Below the pieces are notes generated by a model. The model saw only the letters and a program-made list of their open reading frames with translations. It was not told the origin of the DNA and made no database searches. Positions 13,777-30,594 of a stretch of DNA of 54,579 bases are shown here, one piece after another. Within the stretch, counting starts at the first letter, position 1; each line of letters starts with the position of its first letter. A program made the position numbers and the translations under genes. The stretch is from Chloroflexota bacterium (lineage in GTDB: Bacteria > Chloroflexota > Limnocylindria > Limnocylindrales > CSP1-4), in NCBI GenBank assembly GCA_021785175.1, contig JAJYGH010000007.1:1-54579 (forward strand), given 5' to 3'.

Positions 13777-14193
13777 TCAGCTCGCGGCATCGGCTTCCCG
13801 CCGCACGATGACCGATGGATGACGTCGCGCCTCGGCGAGGTGCGCGGCCGCCCGCGGGTCCGGGAGGAACGCGCGGAGGGCGCGCACGGCCGCGGCCGCG
13901 CGGTACGGGTCGTCGATCCGCGCCGCCATGCGCCCGAGGGGCTCGATGGCCCCGGGCGTCCGGCGGGCGGCGAGCGCGTCGGCGGCGCGGATCGCGGTCG
14001 CCCCATCGGGATGCCCGAGCGCCCACACGAGGCGGGCATCGAAGTCACGCGACGTCTCAAGCGGCGCATCGCAGCGCAGGCACACATCGGCGTCCCACTC
14101 GTTCATCGCGTAGCACGCGGGGCAGAAGCGGGTGGGCCGTTCTCCTCGCACCCCCCGGCGCCCCTCCGATCGCTTCGCCTGCGGTCCGTTCAC
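13777..14193 (-). CDS. zinc-ribbon / HEAT-like repeat protein under a fluoride riboswitch
   Basis: A 138-aa protein. Residues ~20-45 hold a C-x2-C...C-x2-C zinc ribbon (FCPACYAMNEWDADVCLRC). The rest consists of helical repeats of HEAT type (GAIEPLGRMAARIDDPYRAA, then AVRALRAFLPDPRAAAHLAE). Start: GTG 14193, with GAGAGGTGG upstream, directly behind the riboswitch at 14212-14272, whose 3' end can sequester that site. Known function: none; ribbon plus HEAT arrangements usually mediate protein contacts. It diverges from another riboswitch-controlled unit at 14512. Confidence 0.85.
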   Translation of the reverse strand: MNGPQAKRSEGRRGVRGERPTRFCPACYAMNEWDADVCLRCDAPLETSRDFDARLVWALGHPDGATAIRAADALAARRTPGAIEPLGRMAARIDDPYRAAAAVRALRAFLPDPRAAAHLAEARRHPSVIVRREADAAS

Positions 14194-14211
14194 GATCCAC
14201 CTCTCGCCCAA

Positions 14212-14272
14212 GGTAGAAGCCGTCAGCGGATGCGGGTCGTCGCGAGCGCGACGGGCGGGCTTCATCGCCGGT
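14212..14272 (-). promoter_or_regulatory. fluoride riboswitch 1 (crcB RNA motif), translational type
   Basis: Reading the minus strand, GGCGATGAAGCCCGCC (14269-14254) forms the GGCG/CGCC hairpin, and GCTGACGGCTTCTACC (3' half) supplies GGCTTC to pair with GAAGCC. This is the layout of the Thermotoga petrophila fluoride aptamer (GGGCGAUGAGGCCCGCC ... GCUGAUGGCCUCUAC). Between them is an extra CGTCGCG/CGCGACG stem. The conserved CTACCT can instead pair with AGGTGG of the ribosome binding site before GTG 14193. Fluoride binding, which holds CTAC in the aptamer, should then free translation. A -10-like CAGACT lies about 10 nt upstream. Confidence 0.88.
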
Positions 14273-14424
14273 GACCGGAGTCTGGTCGAGGCGCCGGCCG
14301 GAGCCTCTGTCACCCGGTCGGAGCCGACGGTTGTCGCACGCGAGCTTCTCGCGTGATTCGGTTGCCCGACGCATCGTACGGCGCGTCCGATTCCGGTGCC
14401 GATCAGGCCGCGCGCTACACTGGC

Positions 14425-14490
14425 GCTCGGCGATGAGGCTCGCCAGTCCGGGGCGACCCGGCGAATCCGCGGTGCGCTGACAGCCTCTGC
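14425..14490 (+). promoter_or_regulatory. fluoride riboswitch 2 (crcB RNA motif), translational type
   Basis: GGCGATGAGGCTCGCC (14429-14444) and GCTGACAGCCTCTGC (14476-14490) give the two conserved halves; GAGGCT pairs with AGCCTC. A -10 element TACACT is at 14416-14421. Downstream, GCCTCTGCAC (14483-14492) can form a 10-bp stem with GTGCGGAGGC (14499-14508). That stem contains the GGAGG ribosome binding site of the gene at 14512 and shares bases with the aptamer 3' strand: a clear on-switch. It lies back to back with riboswitch 1. Confidence 0.9.
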
Positions 14491-14511
14491 ACTCGATCGT
14501 GCGGAGGCGCC

Positions 14512-14877
14512 ATGCGAACCGGCATCCTCGATCCAACCCCACCCGGCACAGCCCTCTCGTCGGCCGGCCCTCGAGTTGCCCGAGCCAGGGCGGCGCGGCG
14601 TCGCGCGGCGCTGGCTCGTCGCCGGCGGCTCGTGCCGGTGGTTTCCGCACCCGCCCTGCCGGCGCGGCAGAGGCCGCGCGCGGCCGGCTCTCGTGGGCTC
14701 TCCGATGCCGAGATCGAGCGGCAGCTCGAGCACCTCGCGCGTGTGCTCGTGCGAACCATGCGTGCGGTCCCGATGCCCGGGGTGGCGCCACTCCGGCGTC
14801 GCGACTTGCTGTTGATCGCCGGGATCGTCGTGGCCGAGGCGCTCGTCGTCCTCCTGTTCGGCTGGGCGGCGCGATGA
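14512..14877 (+). CDS. small tail-anchored membrane protein under a fluoride riboswitch
   Basis: A 121-aa protein with a long Arg/Ala/Pro-rich N-terminal half, a helical stretch (LSDAEIERQLEHLARVLVRT) and a single C-terminal transmembrane segment (LLLIAGIVVAEALVVLLFGW), so it is probably tail-anchored with its body in the cytoplasm. The start ATG 14512 follows GGAGG (14503-14507), which lies in the switching hairpin of riboswitch 2. Its stop overlaps the next ATG. I recognise no family. Arg-rich spans in GC-rich DNA can be misleading, but riboswitch, RBS and overlap all support the gene. Confidence 0.8.
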   Translation: MRTGILDPTPPGTALSSAGPRVARARAARRRAALARRRRLVPVVSAPALPARQRPRAAGSRGLSDAEIERQLEHLARVLVRTMRAVPMPGVAPLRRRDLLLIAGIVVAEALVVLLFGWAAR

Positions 14878-15176
14878 GTGCAGGCAAGCCGGGGCGGGAT
14901 GCCTCGTCTGAGCCGCGGAGCACGGAATCCGAGGCGGCTCCCGCCCGGCCCGGCCGGTCCAGGCGCCATGTCCCGGGAACAGTGACGCTGCTCGCGGTCG
15001 GTCCCCAGGGCTGGGCGGTTGCCGAGCGCCGGATCGACCACCCGACCCCGATGATCGTCGCGGAGGTCGCAGATCAACTGCGGGCGGCGGTCCGCTCGGA
15101 CACCGGGTGGTTGCCGACGATCCTCGTGCTGGACGAGACGGGGGCGGACGTGAGCCGGCGCTATCCGGTCGACTGA
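14874..15176 (+). CDS. hypothetical protein, 100 aa, coupled to the preceding gene
   Basis: The ATG at 14874 overlaps the preceding stop (ATGA), so it is co-translated in the riboswitch-2 unit. After a polar N-terminus (residues 1-37) comes a compact strand-rich core: HVPGTVTLLAVGPQGWAVAE, then DHPTPMIVAEVADQLRAAVR and WLPTILVLDETGADVSRRYP. No signal peptide, Cys or metal motif is present. I do not recognise the family. The last two genes of this short unit are not large enough to be enzymes of known fluoride resistance. Confidence 0.8.
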   Translation: MSAGKPGRDASSEPRSTESEAAPARPGRSRRHVPGTVTLLAVGPQGWAVAERRIDHPTPMIVAEVADQLRAAVRSDTGWLPTILVLDETGADVSRRYPVD

Positions 15177-15180
15177 AGGC

Positions 15181-15208
15181 GCTGCCGGCGCGGTTGCGCA
15201 CCGGCAGC
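15181..15208. terminator. bidirectional hairpin terminator
   Basis: GCTGCCGG (15181-15188) and CCGGCAGC (15201-15208) form a perfect 8-bp stem with a 12-nt loop that can partly pair further (GCGC...GCGC). It sits between the convergent stops at 15176 and 15222 and could end both units; no strong U-run follows. Confidence 0.65.
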
Positions 15209-15221
15209 TCTCCCCGCTCGA

Positions 15222-15446
15222 TCAATCGGCGAGCGGCATCATCAGTCGTCGAAATGTCCGCAGGCTGTTGACCTCCCGTCCGAGGAGGACGGTCACCGCC
15301 CCACTCTGCGCAAGCTCATCGAGGCCCGCGCCGTCCACGACGCGCCAACCGTCTTCGCCAAAGCGGTCCAGGGCCGCCAAGAGCTCGTGTCCGGTGCCGC
15401 TCGCACCGACGCGCACGCGCTCGATTCTGTACTCGTAGCGTTCCAT
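15222..15446 (-). CDS. DUF4177-like small protein, 74 aa
   Basis: Begins MERYEYRIERVRVGASGTGH, then LLAALDRFGEDGWRVVDGAG and a short C-terminal part ending in positive residues. The pattern (YEY start, alternating strand, L-x2-L-x2-FG-x2-GW-x-VV) is that of DUF4177, small proteins of unknown function built on a strand-helix-strand core. ATG 15446 has AGGGG about 9 nt upstream. It lies downstream of the riboswitch-4 gene on the same strand but is separated from it by two strong inverted repeats, so it may have its own transcript. Confidence 0.8.
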   Translation of the reverse strand: MERYEYRIERVRVGASGTGHELLAALDRFGEDGWRVVDGAGLDELAQSGAVTVLLGREVNSLRTFRRLMMPLAD

Positions 15447-15499
15447 GCTCTATACCCCTGAAGCATCCGTTGCTGATCGCGCCGAAGGCGCCGGTCCAA

Positions 15500-15524
15500 A
15501 GGCATGCGTATCGAGTGCATGCCT
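15500..15524. repeat. inverted repeat upstream of the DUF4177-like gene
   Basis: AGGCATGC (15500-15507) and GCATGCCT (15517-15524) form an 8-bp palindrome with a 9-nt spacer, about 55 nt upstream of ATG 15446. It could be an operator or a leader hairpin. TATCGAG occurs at both 15509 and 15524. Confidence 0.6.
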
Positions 15525-15537
15525 ATCGAGAGAGGGC

Positions 15538-15573
15538 GGGCCCGGGGCACCTGTCGGGGCCAACCCCGGGCCC
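15538..15573 (-). terminator. 10-bp GC hairpin behind the 101-aa gene
   Basis: GGGCCCGGGG (15538-15547) pairs with CCCCGGGCCC (15564-15573) around a 16-nt loop. On the minus strand it follows the stop of the gene at 15631-15936 by about 58 nt and precedes the DUF4177-like gene, so it probably ends the riboswitch-controlled transcript. There is no U-run. Confidence 0.6.
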
Positions 15574-15630
15574 ATGTATGGGATGTGGCGCGTCAACGTC
15601 CCGAGGCGTCCTCGCCACTGTCACCCTGCG

Positions 15631-15936
15631 TCACGCAACCTCGTCGTCGACGTCATAGACGTTGTCGACAACGCGCGGCGGAACGAGGGGCTCCCGCCCG
15701 CCGATTCCGGGCGCCCAGCGCTGCCCGCCACTGTCGGCGACACCGCGGCCTGAGTACCCGTGCGGGCCGTCGGAGGCGAGGCGCTCCGAATAGGCCATCT
15801 GACCATCCGTCGGCGCGCTCTCGCCGGCCCACTGGAACTTCGTCCATTGCGACACGTCGGGCTCGGCCGACGTGTCGAGCCCGGGAAGCTCGCCCGCCCA
15901 TTGCGTACGATCCCACGCGATCCGCCGAAGATCCAT
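15631..15936 (-). CDS. orphan 101-aa QWAGE-repeat protein under a fluoride riboswitch
   Basis: I know no family for this protein. It is Trp/Gly/Asp-rich, polar and without a membrane segment or Cys, and it contains an internal repeat: WDRTQWAGELPGLDTSAE followed by WTKFQWAGESAPTDGQ. It ends acidic (VVDNVYDVDDEVA). The start ATG 15936 has a perfect AGGAGG 9 nt upstream. Its leader (from ~16127) carries a promoter, a fluoride aptamer and a terminator hairpin, so it is expected to be expressed only with fluoride. It is the sole gene clearly served by that riboswitch, so a direct role in fluoride response is likely (inference). Confidence 0.72.
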   Translation of the reverse strand: MDLRRIAWDRTQWAGELPGLDTSAEPDVSQWTKFQWAGESAPTDGQMAYSERLASDGPHGYSGRGVADSGGQRWAPGIGGREPLVPPRVVDNVYDVDDEVA

Positions 15937-16035
15937 TCCGCGAAACCTCCTGCGCCCTGGCCGAAGTCGCGGCCGGGGAACGTCCGCCCGCTGCGGCGAC
16001 GCCGCAGCGCGCTATGGCATGGGCGCAGGCGCACA

Positions 16036-16074
16036 GGAATCAAGACGGCTCCTGGAGCCATTGCCCCAGAAGCC
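16036..16074 (-). terminator. switch terminator of fluoride riboswitch 3
   Basis: On the minus strand, GGCTTCTGG (16074-16066) pairs over 9 bp with CCAGGAGCC (16055-16047) across a 10-nt loop, followed by GTCTTGATTCC. The 5' arm is the 3' strand of the aptamer, so aptamer and terminator exclude each other. The tail is only modestly U-rich. Confidence 0.8.
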
Positions 16075-16118
16075 ATCACCCATCAGGTGGGGTTTGGACG
16101 CGAGCTTCATCGCGTAGC
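16066..16118 (-). promoter_or_regulatory. fluoride riboswitch 3 (crcB RNA motif), terminator type
   Basis: Minus strand: ACGCGATGAAGCTCGCGT (16114-16097) gives the first hairpin and its GAAGC pairs with GCTTC. ACCCCACCTGATGGGTGATGG forms the second hairpin and enters the conserved TGATGGCTTCT. The whole matches the fluoride aptamer layout very closely. The terminator at 16036-16074 overlaps its 3' strand. It controls the 101-aa gene at 15631-15936. Confidence 0.9.
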
Positions 16119-16134
16119 CCTTCGGCCGCCGCGT

Positions 16135-16163
16135 ACCATAGACCGGCACCACCGGACTGTCAA
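16135..16163 (-). promoter_or_regulatory. sigma-70-type promoter of riboswitch 3
   Basis: Minus strand TTGACA (16163-16158), a 17-bp spacer and TATGGT (16140-16135), about 20 nt before the aptamer. Consensus -35 and ideal spacing make this the best promoter seen in the window. The remaining 16164-16384 stretch holds no gene I can support. Confidence 0.75.
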
Positions 16164-16384
16164 GACGGCCACAGGTGTGGACGGCCACAGGCGCAACGGC
16201 CCCGGTCCTGCATCGTTCGGTGGCTGCTTCTCTTCGCGTTCCTCTCGCTGCATCTCGTCCCGGACCTCCTGCCCGGATCTGGGCCGCCGACGATCTCATC
16301 CTGGCGGCAACGATCGTCCGCTGGTGCGGACGGCGCGGGTCTGACAACGGCGTCACGCCCCTGACTGGCATCGTTGGTCGGCGT

Positions 16385-16414
16385 TTGCCGGATGGAACCG
16401 GTCTGGGATAGACT
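16385..16414 (+). promoter_or_regulatory. promoter of the Ehr complex operon
   Basis: TTGCCG (16385-16390), an 18-bp spacer and TAGACT (16409-16414), ending 11 nt before the aptamer. The same TAGACT hexamer precedes riboswitches 5 and 7, which supports it as a shared -10 element of this organism. Confidence 0.65.
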
Positions 16415-16421
16415 CCCGGCT

Positions 16422-16494
16422 CGACGGCGATGGAGCCTCGCCGCGGCCCGTGATGGTCCGGACCGAAACCGCAGCGCGCTGCTGATAGCTCCTC
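16422..16494 (+). promoter_or_regulatory. fluoride riboswitch 4 (crcB RNA motif) of the Ehr operon
   Basis: GGCGATGGAGCCTCGCC (16426-16442) and GCTGATAGCTCCTCC (16480-16494) are the conserved halves; GGAGC pairs with GCTCC. An inserted GGTCCGGACC hairpin and the GCAGC/GCTGC stem lie between them, preceded by the AAACC typical of the motif. A CCCGAC/GTCGGG hairpin follows. The released CTCCTCC could pair with GGAGG (16533-16537) before the first gene, giving translational control (inference). No U-run terminator is seen. Confidence 0.9.
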
Positions 16495-16542
16495 CCCGAC
16501 ACGGTCGGGTCGAAGGACTGCAGTCGCACTGCGGAGGCATAG

Positions 16543-17502
16543 GTGAGTCTCGTCGCCCAGCAGGCGTGCCAGGTTCTGTTCGTCCTGGTGGCGTCCCCGC
16601 TCGTTCCCGGCGTGATCGACCGCGCGAAACACATCGTCCAGTCGAAGCGTGGCCCGAGCATCTTCCAGCCATATCGCGACCTCGCCCGGCTGCTGCGGAA
16701 GGGCAGCATCGTGCCCGAGGACTCGTCGTGGCTCTTCCGGGCCGCGCCCTACGCGGCATTCATCACGCCCCTCGCCGTCGCGATGCTGATCCCGGTGCTC
16801 ACGTCGTATCCTCTGCCGTTCGCGTTCATGGGGGACATGCTCTCCGGGGGCTTCATCCTCGGGCTCGGAAGCCTGCTCACCTCGATCGGCGCGCTCGACT
16901 CCGGGAGCGTCTACGCCGGGATGGGCAGCAGCAGATCGCGTGTCGTCTCCACGCTCGCCGAGCCGACTGTCCTGCTCGTGCTGTTCGGCGTGACCCTCTT
17001 CGCCCACGCCACGATCCCGTTCGTCGTGAACCAGACGCTGGCCGGCCCGACCCTGCTGCTCTCGGCGTCGCACTGGATGCTCGCGGGCGCTCTGCTCATG
17101 GTGATCCTGGCCGAGAGTGGGCGGATCCCCGTCGACAACCCTTCGAGTTCGTACGAGCTCTCGATGATCGAGCACTCGCGAACGTTCGAGTACTCGGGAC
17201 GGTGGCTGGCGCTGCTGCAGTGGGGCGGACAGATGCGCACGTTCGTCCTGCTGACGATCCTGCTGAACGTGCTCACGGTGCCATGGGGTCTCGTGCCTGA
17301 GGGGGCTGCCAGCGCCGGCACGCTGATCCTTGCGGCTGCCGCGCTGCTCGGCAAGATGGCGGTGGTTGCGGCGGCGATCGTCGTGATCGAGTCGACCGTC
17401 GCCAAGTGGCGGTTCTTCCGGATCCCGGAGTACCTCGGCGTCTCGCTGCTGTTGGCAGCACTCGGCACGATCGCTGCGTACGCGACGGGAGTCGCGGCAT
17501 GA
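16543..17502 (+). CDS. HyfC/HycD/NuoH-like membrane subunit of an Ehr-type complex
   Basis: A 319-aa integral membrane protein with about eight helices, homologous to NuoH and HycD/HyfC, the subunit that couples the peripheral arm to ion pumping. Seen: KRGPSIFQPYRDLARLLRKG (the conserved cytoplasmic loop) and ESGRIPVDNPSSSYELSMIE, the acidic-loop signature of this family. Start GTG 16543 with GGAGG 5 nt upstream, right behind riboswitch 4. It leads a seven-gene run with overlapping ends. Confidence 0.93.
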   Translation: MSLVAQQACQVLFVLVASPLVPGVIDRAKHIVQSKRGPSIFQPYRDLARLLRKGSIVPEDSSWLFRAAPYAAFITPLAVAMLIPVLTSYPLPFAFMGDMLSGGFILGLGSLLTSIGALDSGSVYAGMGSSRSRVVSTLAEPTVLLVLFGVTLFAHATIPFVVNQTLAGPTLLLSASHWMLAGALLMVILAESGRIPVDNPSSSYELSMIEHSRTFEYSGRWLALLQWGGQMRTFVLLTILLNVLTVPWGLVPEGAASAGTLILAAAALLGKMAVVAAAIVVIESTVAKWRFFRIPEYLGVSLLLAALGTIAAYATGVAA

Positions 17503-18143
17503 CCCTCCAGGCGCTCCAGATGCTCGAGGCCCTGCTCCTCCTGGCGACGCTGCGGACGGTGGGAGCCCACCGCCTCGCGGACTACATCGGCGGGTTCATC
17601 CTGCAGTCCGTGGTGCTGGCGGCGCTCGCCGTCCTGCTCGCTGCGAGTTCCGGCGCCGCCGACCTGGTAGTCGTCGCCGCCATGACGCTGGGCGCCAAGG
17701 TGTACCTGGTGCCGCGGATCCTGCGCCGCGTCGCAGCCGAGCTCCCCGTGGAACGGGGCGTGCGTTCGATGCTCGGGTTGCCTGCCTCGATCCTCGCTGC
17801 GATCGGGCTGTCGGTGCTGGCATTCCTCGGGACCTCCACCCTGGCCGAATCCGTCGGAGCGCAGGCCGGCTCGTTCGGCGTGTCGCTCAGCATGGTGCTG
17901 ATCGGGCTGTTCCTGATCACGGTTCGCCGCCACGTCGTGGCGCAGCTGGTGGGGCTGCTCACGATGGAGAACGGGACGTTCGCGGGCACGCTCGCGCTCG
18001 CGCCCCGCATGCCGTGGGTCATCGAGTTCGCGATCCTCCTCGACATCCTCGTCGCGGTCGTCGTGATGGGCCTGCTCATAACGCTGATCCACCGCGAGGT
18101 CGCGACCGCGGACACCGCCGCCCTGCGGCAACTCCGGGGGTAG
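17499..18143 (+). CDS. HyfE-like membrane subunit (NuoK-related)
   Basis: A 214-aa protein made almost entirely of hydrophobic helices (LEALLLLATLRTVGAHRLAD at the start; VIEFAILLDILVAVVVMGLL near the end). HyfE proteins are MrpC/NuoK-like subunits found in hydrogenase-4, Mrp-related and Ehr complexes. The length and GLLTMENGTFAGTLALAP, the family's conserved segment, match. The ATG overlaps the preceding stop (ATGA). Confidence 0.88.
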   Translation: MTLQALQMLEALLLLATLRTVGAHRLADYIGGFILQSVVLAALAVLLAASSGAADLVVVAAMTLGAKVYLVPRILRRVAAELPVERGVRSMLGLPASILAAIGLSVLAFLGTSTLAESVGAQAGSFGVSLSMVLIGLFLITVRRHVVAQLVGLLTMENGTFAGTLALAPRMPWVIEFAILLDILVAVVVMGLLITLIHREVATADTAALRQLRG

Positions 18144-18151
18144 GAACGTTG

Positions 18152-19624
18152 ATGATCCTGTTGCTGGCGATCGCCTCGATCGCGGCGGTCGCATCGTTTG
18201 TCGTTCCCCGGCGCGTCGCCGAAGTCGGCACCGTCGTGGCCACTCTGGCGGAGCTGGCCTGCGCGCTGCAGCTCAGCGCGCAGGTGCTGGCGTCGGGACG
18301 CATCGTCGAGCTCGACGACTGGCTCGCGGCCGACGGTCTCTCGGCGGTCGTGACGCTGATCACGGCGTTCGTCGGGGCGGCCGCCGCGATCTACTCGGTC
18401 GGGTATCTCCGCGAGGACATGCGCGAACGGGACCTCGACACGGGTTCCGCCCTCGCCGACCAGCGGCGGTACTACGGGCTGTTCCACCTGTTCCTGCTGG
18501 CCATGTTCGTGGTGAGCCTGACCGACAACCTCGGGCTCATGTGGGTCGCGATCGAGGCGGCCACGCTGGCGTCGCTGTTCCTCGTGAGCTTCTACGGCAC
18601 CCGAGAGGCCCTCGAGGCCGCCTGGAAGTACGTGCTGGTGGGATCGGTCGGGATCGCGCTCGCGTTGACCGGGACCGCCCTCGTCTATACGGCCGGCATC
18701 CGTGCGCTGGGCTCGTCGTACGACATGGTCTGGACCCGGATGGAGGCCGTCGCACCGCGTCTCGACGGCTCGATCATGCTGCTCGCGTTCGTCTTCCTGT
18801 TGATCGGCTACGGGACGAAGGCGGCGCTCGCGCCGATGCACACGTGGCTGCCGGATGCGCACAGCGAGGCACCGAGCCCGATCAGCGCGCTCCTCAGCGG
18901 CGTGCTCGTCACGGTCGCCATGTACGCGATCCTGCGCTTCTACGCGATCGCGGTTCCATCCGCGGGGCGGACGGGGATCGACGTACTGCTGCTCGGTTTC
19001 GGGCTGCTGTCGTTGCTCGTCGGCACCGGGTTCGTGCTGCGCCAGAGCGACTACAAGCGGCTCCTCGCGTACTCGAGCGTGGAGCAGATGGGCCTCGTCA
19101 GCATCGCGATCGCGTTCGGCGGACCGCTCGGCCTGTACGCCGCGATTCTCCAGATGATCGGCCACGCGCTCGCGAAGTCCCTGGCGTTCTTCGCCTCGGG
19201 ACACGTGCTGCTGCGCTACGAGACGCGTGAGGTCGACAAGGTGTCCGGAGCATTGCGGGCGCTGCCGTACAGCGGCGCCGCCCTGCTCCTCGGGGCGCTC
19301 GCGCTCTCCGGCGCTCCCCCGTTCGGCTTGTTTCCCAGCGAGGTGGCGATCGTGACGGCCGGGATCCGGGTCGGGCTGTGGCCGGCGGTTCTGGTGGTCG
19401 CCGCGTGCCTCGCGATCGTCTTTGTGGCCATCGTGGGAACGCTTGCCCGCATGCTGTTCGGGCGGCCGCCGTCCGACGTTCGGCGAGGGGAAGGCCCGTT
19501 GCTGGGTCTGGTCTCCCTCGCGGGCGTGGGGAGCATGCTCCTCGTGCTGGGCGTGTGGATCCCGGGTCCGCTCGACCAGCTGGTCCGTGCCGCGGTCGCG
19601 GCCATTGGCGGAGGGCAGGCGTGA
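18152..19624 (+). CDS. HyfF-like antiporter subunit (NuoN/L family)
   Basis: A 490-aa polytopic protein of the NADH-quinone oxidoreductase/MrpA-D antiporter family. Conserved parts: GLMWVAIEAATLASLFLVSF (with the membrane Glu), YGTKAALAPMHTWLPDAHSE and LLAYSSVEQMGLVSIAIAF. Such subunits carry the proton or sodium channel. ATG 18152 lies 8 bp after the HyfE stop; its stop overlaps the next gene. Glycines and lysines typical of the half-channels (YKRLLAYSS) are kept, so pumping is plausible. Confidence 0.92.
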   Translation: MILLLAIASIAAVASFVVPRRVAEVGTVVATLAELACALQLSAQVLASGRIVELDDWLAADGLSAVVTLITAFVGAAAAIYSVGYLREDMRERDLDTGSALADQRRYYGLFHLFLLAMFVVSLTDNLGLMWVAIEAATLASLFLVSFYGTREALEAAWKYVLVGSVGIALALTGTALVYTAGIRALGSSYDMVWTRMEAVAPRLDGSIMLLAFVFLLIGYGTKAALAPMHTWLPDAHSEAPSPISALLSGVLVTVAMYAILRFYAIAVPSAGRTGIDVLLLGFGLLSLLVGTGFVLRQSDYKRLLAYSSVEQMGLVSIAIAFGGPLGLYAAILQMIGHALAKSLAFFASGHVLLRYETREVDKVSGALRALPYSGAALLLGALALSGAPPFGLFPSEVAIVTAGIRVGLWPAVLVVAACLAIVFVAIVGTLARMLFGRPPSDVRRGEGPLLGLVSLAGVGSMLLVLGVWIPGPLDQLVRAAVAAIGGGQA

Positions 19625-21207
19625 TGCTGCATCCAGACGCCGATCCCGCACGCGTCCGGGGGCACAGCCGGGGCGGCGGCGCCACGTCGTTCTCGCGCAT
19701 TGAACCGCTCGCCGGCGCGATCCCGGTCTCGGCGACCGCCGAGCTCGAGCTCGAGGGCCTTGCCATCGCCGAATGGCCGGATCGCGTGCGTCGGCAGACA
19801 CACCGCGAGAGCGTGATGTTCGCCGACCTGTTCGGTACCGCGGATCCCGACGGCGGCGTCTCGCTGACGCTTCTCCTCAGCCTGCCGGACGGAGGGCGCT
19901 GGCTGGCGCTCCGCGACCGGATCGAGGCAGAGAGCACCTATCCGAGTCTTGTCGCCGGCGGCTTTCCCGCCGCCGAGTGGTACGAGCGCGAGATGCTCGG
20001 CTCGCTCGGCATCCACCCGGTCGGGCACCCCCATCCGGAGTCCCTGCTGCGGGGCGCGGCGCTCGCGAGCGCCGACATGGCGCGGTTCGCACCGCTTCCG
20101 GCGGGCGGGCACGTGGTCGACTTCCCGCTGGGTCCCGTCCGATCGGGCATCGTCGAGTCCGGCCACTACGGGATTCGCACCGTCGGCGAGGAGATCGTCG
20201 ACCTGCGCCTCCAGCTCGGGTTCAAGCACCGCGGCGTCGAGCAGATGCTGGCGGCGGTCGCGTGGCCCCTGGCGCCGCGCGTCGCGGAACGGATCAGCGG
20301 CACGGACGGCGTGGCACATTCGATGGCCGCGGCCGGCGCGCTCGAGCGGCTCCTCGGAGTCGACGTCCCGCTCCGCGCCCGCCAGCTGCGCTCGCTGTTC
20401 GGCGAGCTCGAGCGCCTCTACAACCACGCTGGATACCAGGCGGACCTGTGTGGGGCGACGGGGCTCGCGGTGGCACAGGCTCAGTTCGACATCCTGAAGG
20501 AGCAGATCCTGCGGCTCGCCGCGCGGATCGCCGGCCACCGATACCTGTTCGGGACGATCGTGGTCGGCGGCGTCGCGGACGACCTCGACGACGCGGCGCT
20601 GAACGACGTGCGGGACACCGTCCGGCCAGTACGTGACGCGTTCGAGGCGCTGATCGATCTGGTGGCCACGTCATCCTCCCACCAGGATCGGCTCCAGACG
20701 ACCGGCCGCCTCACGCTCGAGGAGGCGACTCGGTACGCCGTGGTCGGGCCGGTTGCGCGCGCCTCGGGCCTGGCCGTCGACGCGCGCCGGGACCACCCCT
20801 ACGCGGCGTACGACGCGCTCCGACCAACGCTCCATGTGGTCGATGGCGGAGACGCGGCCGCCCGCTCGCAGGTCCGCCTGGAGGAGGGCCTGGCGTCGGC
20901 AGACCTCGTGCTGGACCTCGTCGAGGAGCTGCGCGAATCGGCGCCGCTGCCCGCCCTGCCGTCACCTGCCTCGCGCACGCTCCCTGGGGACACGGTCGGC
21001 TTCGGATGGGCCGAAGGAGCACGCGGGACCGAGCTCCACTGGGTCGAAACAGACCGGGCGGGTGCGATCGGACGCTACCGCGTCCGCAGTGCTTCGTTCG
21101 CCTGCTGGCAGGCATTCGCGCGTTGCGTGCCCGGCGACAACATCCTCACCGACTTCCCGATCATCGAGCAGAGCTTCGGGCTCTCGTTCGCGGGCAGCGA
21201 TCGATGA
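19624..21207 (+). CDS. HyfG/HycE-like NuoC-NuoD fusion subunit lacking the Ni-Fe cysteines (Ehr type)
   Basis: A 527-aa fusion of a NuoC-like domain (about 1-160; GGFPAAEWYEREMLGSLGIH) and a NuoD/hydrogenase large-subunit domain. In [NiFe] hydrogenases two CxxC motifs bind the metal site. Here the N-terminal one reads ERISGTDGVAHS with Ser225 and Asp228 in place of Cys. The C-terminal one is FGLSFAGSDR at the very end, also without Cys. It therefore cannot be a [NiFe] hydrogenase; it fits the energy-converting-hydrogenase-related (Ehr) family between group 4 hydrogenases and complex I. The ATG overlaps the HyfF stop (TGATG); GTG 19621 is an alternative. Confidence 0.93.
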   Translation: MLHPDADPARVRGHSRGGGATSFSRIEPLAGAIPVSATAELELEGLAIAEWPDRVRRQTHRESVMFADLFGTADPDGGVSLTLLLSLPDGGRWLALRDRIEAESTYPSLVAGGFPAAEWYEREMLGSLGIHPVGHPHPESLLRGAALASADMARFAPLPAGGHVVDFPLGPVRSGIVESGHYGIRTVGEEIVDLRLQLGFKHRGVEQMLAAVAWPLAPRVAERISGTDGVAHSMAAAGALERLLGVDVPLRARQLRSLFGELERLYNHAGYQADLCGATGLAVAQAQFDILKEQILRLAARIAGHRYLFGTIVVGGVADDLDDAALNDVRDTVRPVRDAFEALIDLVATSSSHQDRLQTTGRLTLEEATRYAVVGPVARASGLAVDARRDHPYAAYDALRPTLHVVDGGDAAARSQVRLEEGLASADLVLDLVEELRESAPLPALPSPASRTLPGDTVGFGWAEGARGTELHWVETDRAGAIGRYRVRSASFACWQAFARCVPGDNILTDFPIIEQSFGLSFAGSDR

Positions 21208-21226
21208 GACCAGCGAGGACGTTCGC

Positions 21227-21589
21227 ATGCAACTGACCTGGCTCTGGCGCGGCCTCCGCACCGGTGTCCTGACCACTCGCTATCCAAGACGGCCCGAGAG
21301 GATGCCGGACGGGTGGCGCGGGACGGCCGTCCTGCAGCGCGACCAGTGCGTCGTCGAGGGCGCTCCTCCGTCATGCGTGACCGTGTGCCTTCCGCGCGCG
21401 CTGTCCGTCGAGGAGACCGGCGGTGATCGCCGGCTGCGCCTCGACCACGCCGCCTGCATCGCCTGCGGGCTGTGCGTCGCGGCCTGCCCGCGCGGCGCGC
21501 TCTCGATCTCCAACGAGTTCGAGCTTGCGGCATCCTCTCGAGCGCGCCTCATCAGCGAGCATCGTCCGAAGGGAGACCGGGCGGCATGA
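21227..21589 (+). CDS. HyfH/HycF/NuoI-like ferredoxin subunit with one altered cluster
   Basis: A 120-aa subunit that should carry two [4Fe-4S] clusters between the NuoB-like and NuoD-like subunits. The second motif is canonical (CIACGLCVAAC). The first reads DQCVVEGAPPSCVTVC: aligned to the CxxC...PPCVxVC form, the second Cys is Glu, leaving three Cys. The start ATG 21227 has GAGG about 8 nt upstream and lies 19 bp after the preceding gene; the stop overlaps the next ATG. The protein is shorter than E. coli HyfH. The altered site could hold a Glu-ligated or [3Fe-4S] cluster, or none. Confidence 0.88.
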   Translation: MQLTWLWRGLRTGVLTTRYPRRPERMPDGWRGTAVLQRDQCVVEGAPPSCVTVCLPRALSVEETGGDRRLRLDHAACIACGLCVAACPRGALSISNEFELAASSRARLISEHRPKGDRAA

Positions 21590-22128
21590 GCAGGACGGGG
21601 TTCCAGCTTCCGCTGCTCCCGGGCCGGTCGCCGAGTGAACCGCCGGATACCCAGGATCGCACGCGCGCGCTGGAGGCGAAGGGCGCATCGGAGCAGGTTG
21701 GCGCTCGGGTCAGACGGCTGTTCGGCGGGTCGTTCCACCTGCGCCACGTCGACGCGGGCTCGTGCAACGCCTGCGAGTCGGAGCTGAAGGCACTCGCCAA
21801 TCCCTACTACGACCTGCACCGGCTCGGGATCTTCATCGAGCCGTCGCCGCGTCACGCGGACGGCCTCATCGTGACCGGTCCGATCACCCTGCCCATGCGC
21901 GAGCCGCTCCTGCGCACCTACGAGGCGATGCCCGAGCCGCGCCTCGTGATCGCGGTCGGGACGTGCGCCTGCACCGGGGGGATCTTCGCCGGCAGCGAGC
22001 TCGTGGCCGGGCCGCTCGAACGTCTGCTGCCGGTCGACGTGTACATCCCGGGCTGCCCTCCCTCGCCGCTCACGCTGCTGCACGGGCTGCTGCTCGCGCT
22101 CGGCCGGGTTGAGGAGGCGCGGCGATGA
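21586..22128 (+). CDS. HyfI/HycG/NuoB-like small subunit
   Basis: A 180-aa subunit with the proximal cluster ligands of the NuoB/small-subunit family: GSCNACESE, GTCACTGG and PGCPPSPLTLL. It passes electrons to the cavity formed with the large subunit. All four Cys are kept although the Ni-Fe ligands of the partner are lost, so electron transfer to this site is probably still used, for example with quinone. It is flanked by ATGA overlaps on both sides. Confidence 0.92.
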   Translation: MSRTGFQLPLLPGRSPSEPPDTQDRTRALEAKGASEQVGARVRRLFGGSFHLRHVDAGSCNACESELKALANPYYDLHRLGIFIEPSPRHADGLIVTGPITLPMREPLLRTYEAMPEPRLVIAVGTCACTGGIFAGSELVAGPLERLLPVDVYIPGCPPSPLTLLHGLLLALGRVEEARR

Positions 22129-24215
22129 CTGGCATCCTGTTGCCCGCGATCCTCGGTCTCGACGTCGTCGCGATCGCCATCGCACTCGGTGTGCGTCCGC
22201 CCCTCGGCCGGCGGGTCGCACTCGGACTGCTGGCCATCGGCGGGATCCTGGCGGCGACGCTCGGAGGGTTCGTGCTCGCCGGGTCGGGCGGTCCCGGGTT
22301 CGTGCTCGACACGGGGCTTCCCACCGGGGCGCTGCACGTGTCGGTGGACCCCCTCGGAGCGCTGTTCCTCATCCTCGCCGGGCTCCTGACGGCCGCAGCC
22401 GCCGTGTACGCGGATGGCTACCTCGCACACACGGACGCGGGCGTGGTGCGCGCCCACGTGGCGGTGTTCGCACTGCTCGTAGCGGCAATCGTGTCCGTGC
22501 TGGTCGCCGCCGACGGCGTGGCCTTCCTGTTCGCGTGGGAGGTCCTCGCCTGGTCGGCCTACCTCGCCGTCATCCTCGACATCGACGACCCGCGCGTCGG
22601 CCGCGCCGCGTTCCTCATGCTGGCCGTGAGCGAGCTGGGGACCGCGGCGCTCCTCGCCGCGTTCGTCGTGCTCGGCGCCAACGGGTTCACGTTCCCCGCC
22701 ATGATCGCGCGGGGCGAGGCGCTCGACGAGCCGGTCCGGTCGCTCGTGTTCTGGGCGCTCGTCCTCGGCTTCGGCGCGAAAGCCGGGATCATGCCGCTGC
22801 AGCTGTGGCTGCCGGAGGCGCACCCGGCCGCACCGAGCCACGTGTCGGCGCTGCTCTCGGCGATCATCGTCGAGCTCGGCCTCTACGGGATCGTGCGGTT
22901 CGCGTTCGCCGCGCTCCCCACTCCCGAGATCTGGTGGGGCCCGGCCCTGACGGCCCTCGGCGCCGTGACTGCCGCCGTCGCGATCCTCTGGGCGCTCCTG
23001 CAGAACGACATCAAGCGCGTGCTCGCGTACTCGACCATCGAGAACGTCGGCCTGATCGTGGCCGCCCTTGGGCTTTCGGAGACGTTTCGCGCGGCGGGCC
23101 TCGCCGTCCTCGCCGCGCTCGCACTGGTCGCGGCGCTGTACCACGTCTCGACGCACGCCTTCGGCAAGGGTGTCCTGTTCCTCGCCGCGGGATCGGTCGA
23201 CCACGGGACCGGGACGCGGGACCTCGACCGGCTGGGAGGCCTCACGCGGCCGATGCCCGTCACGTCGGTGGCGATGCTGCTCGGTGTGCTGTCGGTGGCC
23301 GCGATCGCGCCGTTCGCGGGGTTCCTCAGCGAGTGGATGATCCTCGAGACGTTCCTCCAGAGCCCGGCCGTACCACTGCTCGGTTCCCGGCTGGTCCTGG
23401 TCGCGGCCGGCGCGGTGCTGGCGCTCACCGCTGCCACGGCCGTGCTCGCATTCGCGCGGCTGTTCGCGACCGGGTTCGTGGGTCGACCGAGGTCACGCGG
23501 CGCGCACGACGCCGTCGAGGCTCCCCGGTCCATGCGGTTCGGCATGGCGCTGCTGCTCGGGCCTCTCCTCGCGATCGGGGTGCTGCCGGCGCTCGCCCTG
23601 CCCCTCGTCGATCGCGCGGCCGCTGGCGTCGTCGGTCCCAGCGTGGCGATGCAGCTGATCCCGCCGCTGTTCGGCAACGCCGGTCCGTACGCCGCGCTCG
23701 TCGCGATCGGAGGTGCCACGTTCCGAGGCCTGCTGCCGGGCAACGGGCTCGTGATCATCCCCGCGCCTGGTCTCAGCACGATCGTCTCGCCGACCTACCT
23801 CGTGCTCTTCGAGGCCGGCTTCGTCGTCCTCACCGCGCTCGGCGTGCGGGCGATCCGGCGCCTCGGACGTGACCGCCGTGCCCCGGCTTGGGGCGGCGGG
23901 ATGAGTTGGCGGCATCCTGCCGCGCAATACACGGCCACGGCCTACGCGAATCCGCTGCGGCTCATCTTCGCGGCCCTGTTCCGGTCGAAGGCACTGCTGA
24001 GCGTGCCGGACCCGGCGGCCAGCGGCGGGAGCGGGGCGCTCGAGTACGAGCAGCAGGCGCCGCCGCCGCTCGAGCGCGAGCTGTACGCGCCGCTGCTCCG
24101 GTCCGTGAGCTGGTTCGCCGACAAGTTCAAGGTGCTGCAGTCCGGCGACACGAACGCCTACGTCGGGTACATCCTGCTCGTCGTCGTGCTCATCGTGCTC
24201 CTTCGTGTCCTCTGA
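22125..24215 (+). CDS. HyfB-like antiporter subunit (NuoL family)
   Basis: A 696-aa polytopic protein, the largest membrane subunit. Conserved parts: VSVDPLGALFLILAGLLTAA, FLFAWEVLAWSAYLAVILD (membrane Glu), GFGAKAGIMPLQLWLPEAHP, VLAYSTIENVGLIVAALGL and FPFxG-like APFAGFLSEW. A C-terminal extension with amphipathic region and a last helix (GYILLVVVLIVLLRVL) resembles the lateral helix region of NuoL/HyfB. The ATG overlaps the NuoB-like stop. In E. coli hyf this subunit comes near the operon start; here it ends the complex genes. Confidence 0.93.
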   Translation: MTGILLPAILGLDVVAIAIALGVRPPLGRRVALGLLAIGGILAATLGGFVLAGSGGPGFVLDTGLPTGALHVSVDPLGALFLILAGLLTAAAAVYADGYLAHTDAGVVRAHVAVFALLVAAIVSVLVAADGVAFLFAWEVLAWSAYLAVILDIDDPRVGRAAFLMLAVSELGTAALLAAFVVLGANGFTFPAMIARGEALDEPVRSLVFWALVLGFGAKAGIMPLQLWLPEAHPAAPSHVSALLSAIIVELGLYGIVRFAFAALPTPEIWWGPALTALGAVTAAVAILWALLQNDIKRVLAYSTIENVGLIVAALGLSETFRAAGLAVLAALALVAALYHVSTHAFGKGVLFLAAGSVDHGTGTRDLDRLGGLTRPMPVTSVAMLLGVLSVAAIAPFAGFLSEWMILETFLQSPAVPLLGSRLVLVAAGAVLALTAATAVLAFARLFATGFVGRPRSRGAHDAVEAPRSMRFGMALLLGPLLAIGVLPALALPLVDRAAAGVVGPSVAMQLIPPLFGNAGPYAALVAIGGATFRGLLPGNGLVIIPAPGLSTIVSPTYLVLFEAGFVVLTALGVRAIRRLGRDRRAPAWGGGMSWRHPAAQYTATAYANPLRLIFAALFRSKALLSVPDPAASGGSGALEYEQQAPPPLERELYAPLLRSVSWFADKFKVLQSGDTNAYVGYILLVVVLIVLLRVL

Positions 24216-24218
24216 CTC

Positions 24219-25970
24219 ATGTACCGGCGGATCGTCGTGGGTCTCGACGGGTCGGCGGCCGCCGCGAGCGCCGCCGACTACGCCGCGTCGCTCGCGCTGC
24301 TCCAGCATGGTCGAGTCACGCTCGTCTCGGTCGCGGAATCGGTCGCCCGGTTCGTCGGAAGCCGCAATCAGGCTGCGCGAGGCGCCCGCGAGGCGGTCGT
24401 TCGCCTCGAGGAGGCGCAGCGTTCGGCGGTTCTCCGGACGCGCCGACGCGGCGTCGAGGTCGAGGCCGTGGTCCGTCGCGGCGTCCCACGCGAGGAACTG
24501 CTCAGGGCCGTCGAGACGTTCTCGGCCGATCTGCTCGTGGTCGGGCGGTCGACGGGACAATCCGGCGGCGGCCTCGGGTCCGACGCGGCGCACCTGTCCC
24601 GCGACGCGTCCTGCTCAGTCCTGTTGATCCCGGAAGCAGCCAGCGTACCTCCGGCGCGCATGGTCATCGGGTATGACGGGTCGCCCGCGGCGGCGCAGGC
24701 GCTCGAGGTCGGGCGATCGCTGGCGACGGCATACGGCGCGCGGCTCATCGTGGCCGTCGCGGCGCAGGCCGCCTCGGAGCCCTGGAGCCGGTCGGCGGGC
24801 CTGCCGGCCGCGGGCACGACGCAGCGTCGCATCTCCGTGGTCGAGCTGCGCGGCGAGCCGGCGCCGGCGATCCTCGAAGAGGCTCGCCGGGATGACGTGC
24901 AGCTGATCGTGCTCGGATCGACGGGCGTGCGGCACCCCTGGGGGCGAGACCTGGGCGGGACCGCGGCGCGGGTGGCCAGGGATGCCCGCGTTTCCGTCCT
25001 CATCGTCCGCCTTCCGACGATTGCCCGGACCGTCAGCGAGCTCATGCGGCGAGACGTCGAGACCGTGTCGCCGGACACGAAGGTCCGCGACTCCACCGCG
25101 CTGCTCCTGGAACGCGGCATCAAGAGCCTCCCCGTCATCGATGCCGACGGTCGTGTCGTCGGCATCGTCACGCTCGGCGACCTGCTCCGGCGCGCAGGCG
25201 TGTCGATGCGGCCGAGCTTCGTCGGTGGCATCGCGGAGGGGGGCATGGCGGAGTACCTGGGGGGGCTCGGCTCCCGCGACCGCACCGTCCGGGAGATCAT
25301 GAGTCACCAGGTCGTCACCATCGAGCCAGAGCGGCCGGCCACCGAGGCTGTCGCGCTCCTCGGGAAGCATCGCGTCAAGCGACTTCCCGTCGTGGCGGCG
25401 GATGGGCGCCTGATCGGGATCGTCTCCCGTGCGGACCTCCTGCGCGGCGTCACCGGCATCGTGGAACACGACGACGTCACCATGCGCCGCGCGATCACCG
25501 GCACCATCGCCGCAGACATCATGCAGCACGCCGTGCCGACGGTCTCGACCGGCGCGTCACTCGAGGAGGCGGCTCGGGCAGTGCTCACGTCCTCAGTCGG
25601 TCGCGTTGCCGTGGTGGACGACCAGGAACGCGTCGCCGGCGTGATCTCGACACGGGACCTGCTGCCGCTCGCAACCGGGCACTCGTTCCGCCAGCTGCTC
25701 GACGCGCTCGGGCCGGCGGCCGCGCCGCGGGAGTCCTTCCTCGCGAGCCTTGGACGGCGGGCCGACGGCGCCCGGGCCATGGACCTGATGCGGCGGAACG
25801 TGATCACCGTCCCGCCGGACGCCTCGCTCGATCACGTGCTGCGCGTGATGATGACGCGTGGCCTGAAGCGGCTCCTGGTCGCCGATTCGTCGCGCCGGTT
25901 GGTCGGCGCCGTTGACCGGGCGGACATCATGCGGTGCATCGCGCCGGCGCTGGGTACCGAAACGAGGTAA
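24219..25970 (+). CDS. universal stress protein with tandem Usp and four CBS motifs
   Basis: A 583-aa cytoplasmic protein. Two Usp domains (about 1-135 and 145-262) show the ATP-binding G-rich loops LVVGRSTGQSGGGLGSD and IVLGSTGVRHPWGRDLGGTA. Four CBS motifs follow, beginning SELMRRDVETVSPDTKV, REIMSHQVVTIEPERPA, ADIMQHAVPTVSTGASL and MDLMRRNVITVPPDASL, making two Bateman modules that bind adenine nucleotides. It starts 3 bp after the Ehr genes, so it is part of the riboswitch-4 transcript and may adjust the complex to cell energy state (inference). Confidence 0.9.
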   Translation: MYRRIVVGLDGSAAAASAADYAASLALLQHGRVTLVSVAESVARFVGSRNQAARGAREAVVRLEEAQRSAVLRTRRRGVEVEAVVRRGVPREELLRAVETFSADLLVVGRSTGQSGGGLGSDAAHLSRDASCSVLLIPEAASVPPARMVIGYDGSPAAAQALEVGRSLATAYGARLIVAVAAQAASEPWSRSAGLPAAGTTQRRISVVELRGEPAPAILEEARRDDVQLIVLGSTGVRHPWGRDLGGTAARVARDARVSVLIVRLPTIARTVSELMRRDVETVSPDTKVRDSTALLLERGIKSLPVIDADGRVVGIVTLGDLLRRAGVSMRPSFVGGIAEGGMAEYLGGLGSRDRTVREIMSHQVVTIEPERPATEAVALLGKHRVKRLPVVAADGRLIGIVSRADLLRGVTGIVEHDDVTMRRAITGTIAADIMQHAVPTVSTGASLEEAARAVLTSSVGRVAVVDDQERVAGVISTRDLLPLATGHSFRQLLDALGPAAAPRESFLASLGRRADGARAMDLMRRNVITVPPDASLDHVLRVMMTRGLKRLLVADSSRRLVGAVDRADIMRCIAPALGTETR

Positions 25971-26268
25971 GCGACTGCTGATCGTGAGCGACCTCCACGC
26001 GAACCTCGCCGCGCTCGGGCGCGTCGCGGACACGGCGGAGGCGGTCGTGTTCCTGGGCGACGCCGTCGACGACGGGCCGGACCCGGCCGCGGCGGTCGAC
26101 TGGGTACGCCGGAGGGCGACATACGCGGTGCGGGGCAACCACGACGAGGCGGTCGGGAACGGGGGACCGACGGGCGCGGCGCCGGCCTGGGCGGACCTCG
26201 CGGAGGCGAGCGCGACCTACAGCGTGAACCTGGCCCGCTGGGGGTTCCAGCCGGCCCAAGACGATTGA
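25912..26268 (+). pseudogene. truncated calcineurin-like phosphoesterase
   Basis: From about 25970 the frame encodes the N-terminal half of a YfcE/MJ0936-like metallophosphoesterase: LLIVSDLHANLAAL, VVFLGDAVDDGPDPAAAVDW and YAVRGNHDEAV, i.e. the D-x-H, GD and GNHD metal motifs. It then ends at residue 118; the family normally continues another 100 or more residues with further His ligands. The true start is unclear: ATG 25912 overlaps the Usp-CBS gene by 59 bp in another frame, and a non-ATG start near 25974-25985 is possible. Probably a 3'-truncated remnant at the operon end. Confidence 0.7.
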
Positions 26269-26291
26269 TCTCCACTCCGACCCGCTCACGT

Positions 26292-28067: not shown

Positions 28068-28072
28068 GGCGC

Positions 28073-28362
28073 TCAGTGTCTGTCGCGAGCGAGGGGGCGC
28101 ACCGCAGTCTCGAGGGCCAGCACGAGGTCCATCAACCGCTGCATCACGGGGTGGAGGATGCCGGGCACGGCCGGATCGACCTCGCCGCAGGCGCGCATCC
28201 CGCGCGCATCCCGCGCGCATCGACCTCGCCAAGGGTCTCCCAGGACATCGCGAGCAGCCCGACGATCGCCGTCAGGCGCTCCTCGAGGAGGCGCAGGGAT
28301 ACGGCGAGTGCGCGACGCTGGCTCTCGTTGAGCCGCGCCACGCCCATCGCGTCAGCGGCCAC
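28073..28362 (-). pseudogene. small helical protein gene frameshifted by a 44-bp duplication
   Basis: From ATG 28362 the frame reads MAADAMGVARLNESQRRALA, then RLLEERLTAIVGLLAMSWET up to GEVDA, then shifts into low-complexity Arg/Ala sequence. On the minus strand GGCGAGGTCGAT occurs twice, 44 bp apart, flanking repeats of GCGCGGGAT. Removing 44 bp restores the frame GEVDPAVPGILHPVMQRLMD, then LVLALETAVRPLARDRH and a stop at 28073, just before the GTPase start: about 80 aa. The ATG overlaps the pyrophosphatase 3' end by 11 bp. As it stands the gene gives a 72-aa altered product ending at 28144. Confidence 0.75.
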
Positions 28363-29950: not shown

Positions 29951-29971
29951 GACGCTCCACCTCGCCCTCGA

Positions 29972-30037
29972 AGTAGAAGCCGTCAGCGGCCGCTGGCCGC
30001 GGTGGGAACCGTCCTGGTGGCGGGCCTCATCGCCGTG
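29972..30037 (-). promoter_or_regulatory. fluoride riboswitch 5 (crcB RNA motif) of the pyrophosphatase operon
   Basis: Minus strand: GGCGATGAGGCCCGCC (30034-30019), almost identical to the T. petrophila aptamer 5' half, then GCGGCC/GGCCGC stem and CCGCTGACGGCTTCTACT. A -10 TAGACT is at 30049-30044. Downstream, CTACTTC (29975-29969) can form a 7-bp stem with GAGGTGG (29962-29956), hiding the ribosome binding site of the 83-aa gene; the aptamer fold would release it. Confidence 0.9.
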
Positions 30038-30412: not shown

Positions 30413-30483
30413 AGCGCCAGACCGGAGTCGTGGGGCCCGGGAGAGGCCGCACGGCGTTCCTCGGGTATCATGTCGACAACCGA

Positions 30484-30543
30484 AGAGGCGCGATGAAGCT
30501 CGCGTCGAGCGTCCGACCCCGCACAGCGGGTGATGGCTTCTGG
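30484..30543 (+). promoter_or_regulatory. fluoride riboswitch 6 (crcB RNA motif), terminator type
   Basis: CGCGATGAAGCTCGCG (30489-30504) is the first hairpin; CCCCGCACAGCGGG the second, followed by TGATGGCTTCTGG (30531-30543). GAAGC pairs with GCTTC. A -10-like TATCAT is at 30466-30471; no good -35. The next hairpin (30535-30570) uses the same GGCTTCT, making a transcriptional on-switch for the Nudix-moxR operon. Confidence 0.92.
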
Positions 30544-30570
30544 AGCATCTCCAGGAGCCGTCTTCTTTTG
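30535..30570 (+). terminator. intrinsic terminator of fluoride riboswitch 6
   Basis: GGCTTCTGGAG (30535-30545) pairs over all 11 positions (one G-U) with CTCCAGGAGCC (30549-30559), loop CAT, followed by the U-rich GTCTTCTTTTG. The 5' arm includes the aptamer 3' strand. Confidence 0.92.
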
Positions 30571-30594
30571 TCGAACGTCGAGAGTGAGAACGCC

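What the first reader, a model, noticed from the sequence alone, without database searches (positions are those of the whole stretch)
15631..16163. Orphan QWAGE-repeat protein with its own promoter, fluoride aptamer and terminator
A complete control unit (TTGACA-17-TATGGT, aptamer, switch terminator, AGGAGG) serves one unknown 101-aa polar protein with an internal W-x3-QWAGE repeat. Such dedicated control suggests a direct role in fluoride response.
Basis: partly seen in the sequence, partly recalled or inferred. Interest (0 to 1): 0.82.

Follow-up and report, generated by a model that had tools for sequence, protein, structure and literature searches.

The report
Fluoride-switched small-protein gene in Chloroflexi
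In a Chloroflexi bacterium, a fluoride-sensing type of RNA switch stands in front of a gene for a small, previously undescribed repeat protein, and the same pairing occurs in another genus beside a fluoride exporter gene, so this protein probably belongs to the cell's fluoride defence.

Summary
On the minus strand lie TTGACA-17-TATGGT (16163-16135), a fluoride-type aptamer (16126-16060), an overlapping terminator-like hairpin (16077-16044), AGGAGG (15951-15946) and a 101-aa ORF (15936-15631). The aptamer scores 30.7 bits against Rfam Fluoride, below the curated cut-off of 34. It belongs to a divergent, mostly Chloroflexi subtype that Rfam largely misses. Elsewhere that subtype precedes enolase and pyrophosphatase, the classic fluoride targets. 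"Orphan" is wrong: the QWAGE protein has two paralogues in its genome and relatives in other genera, under purifying selection. In one other genus (G077) the closest relative also follows this aptamer, with a textbook terminator, near a divergent canonical fluoride riboswitch driving an Na+/H+ antiporter-CrcB operon. Other family members lack the aptamer, so the family is not fluoride-specific. "Dedicated" is too narrow: the window holds six fluoride-type aptamers in three divergent pairs, serving QWAGE, a zinc-ribbon/HEAT protein, a hydrogenase-4-like complex plus UspA/CBS, DnaJ-pyrophosphatase, Nudix, and a small membrane protein plus DUF. No CrcB was found in the genus. The regulatory reading is strong; the protein's biochemical role is unknown, and the structure prediction was uninformative.

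The parts
16135..16163 (-). promoter-like site TTGACA-17-TATGGT of the QWAGE unit
   Evidence: 10 of 12 matches; 0.2 expected in 50 shuffles
16060..16126 (-). fluoride-type aptamer, divergent subtype 'B' (P1 CGCG/CGCG, loop AUGAAGCU, P3 CCCA/UGGG, UGAUG, pseudoknot AAGC:GCUU)
   Evidence: RF01734 30.7 bits, below the gathering score 34; pattern recurs in 11 of 107 family genomes, reversed-pattern control 0; subtype model R1 75.9 bits, by construction, as this copy is in the model
16044..16077 (-). terminator-like hairpin that takes up the aptamer's 3' pseudoknot strand GGCUUCU (mutually exclusive with the aptamer); weak U-tract in this copy
   Evidence: fold; in 15 aligned copies 100% of cells paired with compensatory changes
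15986..16012 (-). second strong hairpin between terminator and RBS, role unexplained
   Evidence: inverted repeat I1; fold
15946..15951 (-). AGGAGG ribosome-binding site, 9 nt before ATG
15631..15936 (-). QWAGE protein, 101 aa, two W-x3-QWAGE repeats, GGQRWAP motif, acidic tail
   Evidence: homologues; dN/dS 0.36, 0.36, 0.27 in three family pairs; no Pfam or NCBIfam hit
15222..15446 (-). DUF4177-like 74-aa ORF downstream of QWAGE, also paired with the paralogue on contig C90
   Evidence: Pfam PF13783 18.9 bits (cut-off 25); 34% identity to the C90 neighbour, E 3e-9; C90 order
16417..16501 (+). fluoride-type aptamer divergent to the QWAGE one, before the hydrogenase-4-like (Ehr-type) operon and UspA/CBS gene
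   Evidence: RF01734 32.2 bits
16543..24215 (+). hydrogenase-4/complex-I-like membrane complex; large subunit without NiFe cysteine motifs (RISGTDGVAH)
   Evidence: Pfam; sequence
24219..25970 (+). UspA plus CBS protein directly behind the complex
   Evidence: Pfam
14207..14278 (-). fluoride-type aptamer before a zinc-ribbon/HEAT protein (13777 to about 14200)
   Evidence: RF01734 26.5 bits; HEAT_2; gene behind it
14429..14515 (+). fluoride-type aptamer whose 3' strand GCCUC would pair with the RBS region GGAGG of ORF 14512 (translation-type platform)
   Evidence: same architecture in L043, L038, L040, L041
29967..30043 (-). fluoride-type aptamer before DnaJ-domain ORF and inorganic pyrophosphatase
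   Evidence: RF01734 26.2 bits; Pyrophosphatase, DnaJ
30477..30571 (+). subtype-B fluoride-type aptamer and strong overlapping terminator before a Nudix hydrolase (30595-31032)
   Evidence: R1 81.8 bits; sequence; NUDIX

Best explanation
This is a fluoride-ON transcription-attenuation unit. RNA polymerase starts close to 16127 and makes a divergent fluoride-type aptamer. Without fluoride, the 3' strand GGCUUCU pairs with downstream AGGAGCC into a terminator hairpin and transcription stops. With fluoride, the aptamer's pseudoknot (AAGC:GCUU) holds that strand, the hairpin cannot form, and the QWAGE gene (possibly with the DUF4177-like gene behind it) is expressed. The product is a small acidic, possibly mostly disordered, cytosolic protein of a lineage-specific tandem W-x3-[QE]WxG repeat family. 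It most likely acts as an accessory binding or stress protein of the fluoride regulon. Shown here by sequence: the parts, the conserved switch anatomy, the recurrence in two genera, and purifying selection. Inferred: fluoride binding, the ON direction, and any benefit under fluoride. The molecular partner is unknown.
For: Parts. Fluoride nature of the subtype: the window copy reaches RF01734 at E 1.2e-4. The subtype model R1 in turn recovers sites that RF01734 scores above its cut-off: G114:C231, 50.0 bits with RF01734 and 41.2 bits with R1; also L098. The pseudoknot pairs are kept across the canonical and the window's variants (GAG:CUC, AAG:CUU, AGG:CCU). Subtype-B elements precede enolase (L043) and, twice, pyrophosphatase (L105). 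Switch anatomy: the terminator stem has all cells paired in 15 sequences with 11 compensatory cells, 0/500 shuffles as high. Association with QWAGE: G077:C184 has aptamer 3909-3950(+), terminator with TTTTTT, then QWAGE at 4094; on the other strand a canonical aptamer at 3703-3786 (45.2 bits) drives an Na+/H+ exchanger, CrcB and DUF190-CBS. Placement of that one gene within 200 nt of one of three such elements has a chance of roughly 1e-4 (my estimate). The two fluoride-linked proteins are each other's closest (42-48% identity, shared DSGGQRWAP and DDE..VA; support 86/83). Coding: dN/dS below 0.4.
Against: The window aptamer is below Rfam's gathering score (30.7 vs 34), and most subtype-B copies are not detected by RF01734 at all, so a change of ligand cannot be excluded by sequence. 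The U-tract of this copy's terminator is weak. Only 2 of about 15 QWAGE loci have the aptamer. AlphaFold gave pLDDT 46 on two sequences, which says nothing firm. There are no expression or binding data.
Confidence: 0.78

Rival explanations
1. The subtype-B aptamer has shifted to another ligand or to general ion sensing, and the QWAGE protein belongs to a neighbouring but different stress response.
For: Most subtype-B copies score nowhere in RF01734. The linker lacks the canonical AAC in most copies. Some genes served (Nudix, MFS, DUF6062-like) are not classic fluoride genes.
Against: The pocket strands GAUG and UGAUG and the pseudoknot are kept. Copies precede enolase and pyrophosphatase and sit beside canonical fluoride riboswitches in G077 and G120 and fluoride-type ones in the window.
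Confidence: 0.1
2. QWAGE is a general stress or osmoprotective (hydrophilin-like) small protein that has been put under several controls. Fluoride is just one trigger, with no fluoride-specific chemistry. This is compatible with the regulatory half of the best explanation and competes only with its functional half.
For: Paralogues sit at a dihydroxyacetone kinase-aquaporin locus (C81) and with a DUF4177-like gene, an ArsR-like regulator and a transporter (C90), without a detected fluoride element. The window protein is acidic and glycine-rich (13 G, net -8). No confident fold was predicted. UspA, a general stress protein, is a known fluoride-operon member (PMC5533749).
Against: No direct evidence for protection. 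The W-x3-[QE]WxG repeats look more sequence-specific than typical hydrophilins (inference).
Confidence: 0.5
3. The ORF is not a real gene; the riboswitch really serves the DUF4177-like gene or is a relic.
For: Weak U-tract; only moderate codon-position GC contrast (0.74, 0.55, 0.81).
Against: Homologues in several genera with conserved repeats; dN/dS 0.36 against the G077 orthologue.
Confidence: 0.03

Closest known systems
Fluoride riboswitch (crcB motif, Rfam RF01734)
   Same: P1 with GAUG loop, P3, UGAUG, loop-3' strand pseudoknot, overlapping terminator, ON-type logic; the genes behind it include pyrophosphatase, enolase, UspA and hydrogenase-4-like genes, as described in PMC2864571, PMC11139923 and PMC5533749
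   Different: P1 is CGCG/CGCG with an invariant GAAGCUC loop, the linker is variable and mostly lacks AAC, and the Rfam model usually does not find it; nearly confined to Chloroflexi MAGs at exact-pattern level
Fluoride resistance operon of Enterobacter cloacae FRM (ppaC-uspA-eno-gpmA-crcB-orf5249; PMC5533749)
   Same: A fluoride riboswitch groups pyrophosphatase, UspA and other genes with a role in fluoride resistance
   Different: Here several separate switches in divergent pairs, no CrcB found in the genus, and unknown small proteins
Energy-converting hydrogenase-related (Ehr) complexes (definition in PMC6349859)
   Same: Hydrogenase-4/complex-I-like subunits without NiFe ligands
   Different: Here preceded by a fluoride-type aptamer; only sequence motifs were examined

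Membership tests
Fluoride riboswitch RF01734 | score at or above Rfam gathering threshold (34 bits) | tested here: not met
   30.7 bits at 16123-16060(-); other window copies 32.2, 26.5, 26.2. It is therefore described as a divergent relative or subtype, not filed as a curated member
Fluoride riboswitch RF01734 | full-length match to the aptamer with significant E-value | tested here: met
   model 1-64 of 64, E 1.2e-4 for the window against all families
Fluoride riboswitch RF01734 | pseudoknot between P1 loop and the 3' strand, with covariation | tested here: met
   pairs kept across canonical and window variants with G-C/A-U exchange
Fluoride riboswitch RF01734 | expression platform overlapping the aptamer | tested here: met
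   terminator stem; weak U-tract in the window copy
Fluoride riboswitch RF01734 | binds fluoride | not testable with these tools
   needs in-line probing or a transcription assay
QWAGE small-protein family (proposed here) | two W-x3-[QE]W[APSV]G motifs and a C-terminal G-x-x-W motif, with homologues outside the genome | tested here: met
   invariants W8, W13, G15, W31, G38, G63, W74 in nine sequences
Any Pfam or NCBIfam family | profile match of the QWAGE protein | tested here: not met
   no hit at 0.01 (Pfam) or 1 (NCBIfam); no relevant PDB relative
Ehr complex (window 16543-24215) | group-4-hydrogenase-like subunits lacking the cysteine NiFe ligands | tested here: met
   Pfam; RISGTDGVAH where a hydrogenase would have RxCGxC, and no C-terminal CxxC, in ORF 19378-21207 (read)

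The most novel reading that the evidence does not exclude
A lineage without the CrcB fluoride channel runs a multi-switch fluoride regulon in which lineage-specific small proteins, QWAGE and the zinc-ribbon/HEAT protein, together with an Ehr-type complex provide fluoride tolerance by a route other than CrcB export; QWAGE would be a new kind of fluoride-defence protein.
Probability: 0.2. Interest if true: 0.8.

Novelty: new variant of a known kind. Interest (0 to 1): 0.56.

Why it matters
Fluoride riboswitches point to genes that help cells survive fluoride, which also matters for degrading fluorinated pollutants. This locus adds an undescribed small-protein family with comparative support for a fluoride link, and a riboswitch subtype that the standard Rfam model mostly misses. 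Fluoride regulons in Chloroflexi are therefore probably undercounted. The absence of detectable CrcB in the genus makes the unknown members directly testable candidates for tolerance that does not depend on CrcB.

Tried and rejected
Rfam scan at gathering threshold: 0 hits, so the aptamer would be missed by routine annotation. Pfam, NCBIfam and PDB for the QWAGE protein: nothing usable (a PDB hit to ulvan lyase at E 0.24 was dismissed). Weak QWAGE matches were not accepted unless they showed the double motif. The MFS gene in the window (about 39660) was checked for the aptamer its relatives carry; none was seen. A CLC protein in the genome (G000:C3) has GSGGSGGREGP, the usual chloride-type motif as I recall it; whether it is a fluoride-type CLC was not tested.

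Full report
What is there. The promoter-like site TTGACA-17-TATGGT is at 16163-16135. A fluoride-type aptamer follows at 16123-16060 (Rfam RF01734, 30.7 bits, gathering score 34; E 8e-7 on the local stretch and 1.2e-4 on the whole window against all 4227 families). A 15-pair hairpin at 16077-16044 takes up the aptamer's 3' strand. AGGAGG stands 9 nt before the ATG of a 101-aa ORF, 15936-15631. Two weak points: this copy's hairpin is followed by GUCUUGAUUCC, a poor U-tract, and a second strong hairpin (15986-16012) sits before the RBS.

The aptamer is one of a subtype. A pattern made from it, GATGAAGCTCGC-N-GATGGCTTCT, occurs in 11 of 107 genomes of the same family and never in the reversed control. 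In 84,980 species it hits 16 stretches, nearly all from MAGs labelled Chloroflexi. Fifteen copies align with an invariant core and an overlapping terminator whose stem is paired in every cell, with compensatory changes not reached in 500 shuffles; most copies end in a clear run of T. A covariance model (R1) of the subtype also recovers canonical fluoride riboswitches: one site scores 50.0 bits with RF01734 and 41.2 bits with R1, and another is in L098. The pseudoknot pairs are kept through A-U/G-C exchanges between canonical and window forms. Subtype copies stand directly before enolase (L043) and, in an AT-rich bacterium, twice before inorganic pyrophosphatase (L105) (gene identities read from the translations). 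These are classic fluoride-sensitive enzymes and known riboswitch-linked genes (PMC11139923; PMC5533749). I therefore read the subtype as fluoride-sensing, but it fails Rfam's cut-off and fluoride binding is untested.

The protein is not an orphan. Searches found two paralogues in its own genome (contigs C81 and C90) and homologues in several genera of the family. They share two W-x3-[QE]W[APSV]G motifs and a later G-x-x-W motif; seven positions are invariant in nine sequences. dN/dS is 0.36, 0.36 and 0.27 in three pairs, as for a real protein. No Pfam, NCBIfam or PDB family matches, and a two-sequence AlphaFold run gave no confident structure.

The link between switch and protein recurs. In G077, a different genus, the subtype aptamer at C184:3909-3950(+) and a terminator ending in TTTTTT lead into a QWAGE gene (start 4094). 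Divergent to it, a canonical fluoride aptamer at 3703-3786 (45.2 bits) leads an Na+/H+ exchanger, CrcB and a DUF190-CBS protein; a zinc-ribbon/HEAT gene like the one in our window and a calcineurin-like phosphoesterase lie on the same contig. The G077 and window proteins are each other's closest relatives (48% in the pair alignment; support 86/83). By my rough estimate, chance placement behind one of three such elements in 3.1 Mb is about 1e-4. Other QWAGE loci have no such element that I could find: C81 lies with dihydroxyacetone kinase and aquaporin genes, and C90 with a DUF4177-like gene that also follows QWAGE in our window. The family is thus broader than fluoride.

The setting. The window carries six fluoride-type aptamers in three divergent pairs: 14207(-)/14429(+), 16060(-)/16417(+), 29967(-)/30489(+). 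They serve a zinc-ribbon/HEAT protein, a small membrane protein plus a short DUF ORF (a translation-type switch in which the aptamer strand GCCUC faces the RBS GGAGG), QWAGE, a hydrogenase-4-like complex followed by a UspA/CBS gene, a DnaJ-domain protein plus pyrophosphatase, and a Nudix hydrolase. The large subunit of the complex lacks the NiFe cysteines, like Ehr complexes (PMC6349859). 'Formate hydrogen lyase' genes have been listed behind this motif since 2010 (PMC2864571), so that part is expected. No CrcB was found in eight genomes of the genus, two of them over 90% complete, while the same search rang in 10 of 14 control genomes.

Verdict. The regulatory anatomy is real and well supported, the fluoride link is good but not proven, and the protein's mode of action is open. 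My working explanation is a fluoride-ON attenuation switch for a small accessory stress protein recruited to the fluoride regulon. The strongest rival is that QWAGE proteins are general stress proteins for which fluoride is only one trigger; this is compatible with the regulatory half of the explanation.

Noticed in passing
window 14207-30571: Six fluoride-type aptamers in three divergent pairs within 16 kb; only four are seen by Rfam even at a relaxed threshold and none at gathering.
   Followed up: yes
window 13777-14200 (-): Zinc-ribbon plus HEAT small protein under a fluoride-type aptamer; the same pair recurs in L038, L040, L041, L042, L043, L044 and L103, and a relative lies on the G077 contig near QWAGE. 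Another undescribed fluoride-linked family.
   Followed up: partly
window 14429-15176 (+): Fluoride-type aptamer whose 3' strand would mask the RBS (translation-type), before a small membrane protein and a short DUF ORF; same architecture in L038, L040, L041, L043.
   Followed up: partly
window 16543-24215 (+): Hydrogenase-4/complex-I-like operon lacking NiFe cysteine motifs (Ehr-like) behind a fluoride-type aptamer; 'formate hydrogenlyase' annotations behind this riboswitch may sometimes be Ehr.
   Followed up: partly
genus of the window (8 genomes): No CrcB (PF02537) found although fluoride-type riboswitches are frequent; the CLC found has a GREGP motif and was not tested for fluoride selectivity.
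   Followed up: partly
L105 1759-1844 and 6109-6195 (-): An AT-rich bacterium (MAG WY5.bin132) carries two near-copies of subtype-B aptamer plus pyrophosphatase about 4 kb apart.
   Followed up: no
L043 (G002:C332) 1-3163: A 3.2-kb contig with four fluoride-type elements, one directly before enolase.
   Followed up: partly
L135 and L136 (G000:C90, G047:C250): QWAGE-DUF4177-regulator-transporter block nearly identical between two genera: recent transfer or shared MAG contamination.
   Followed up: no
window 39059-39149 (+): ARAGORN tRNA call without identity and with a four-base anticodon, probably a false positive.
   Followed up: no
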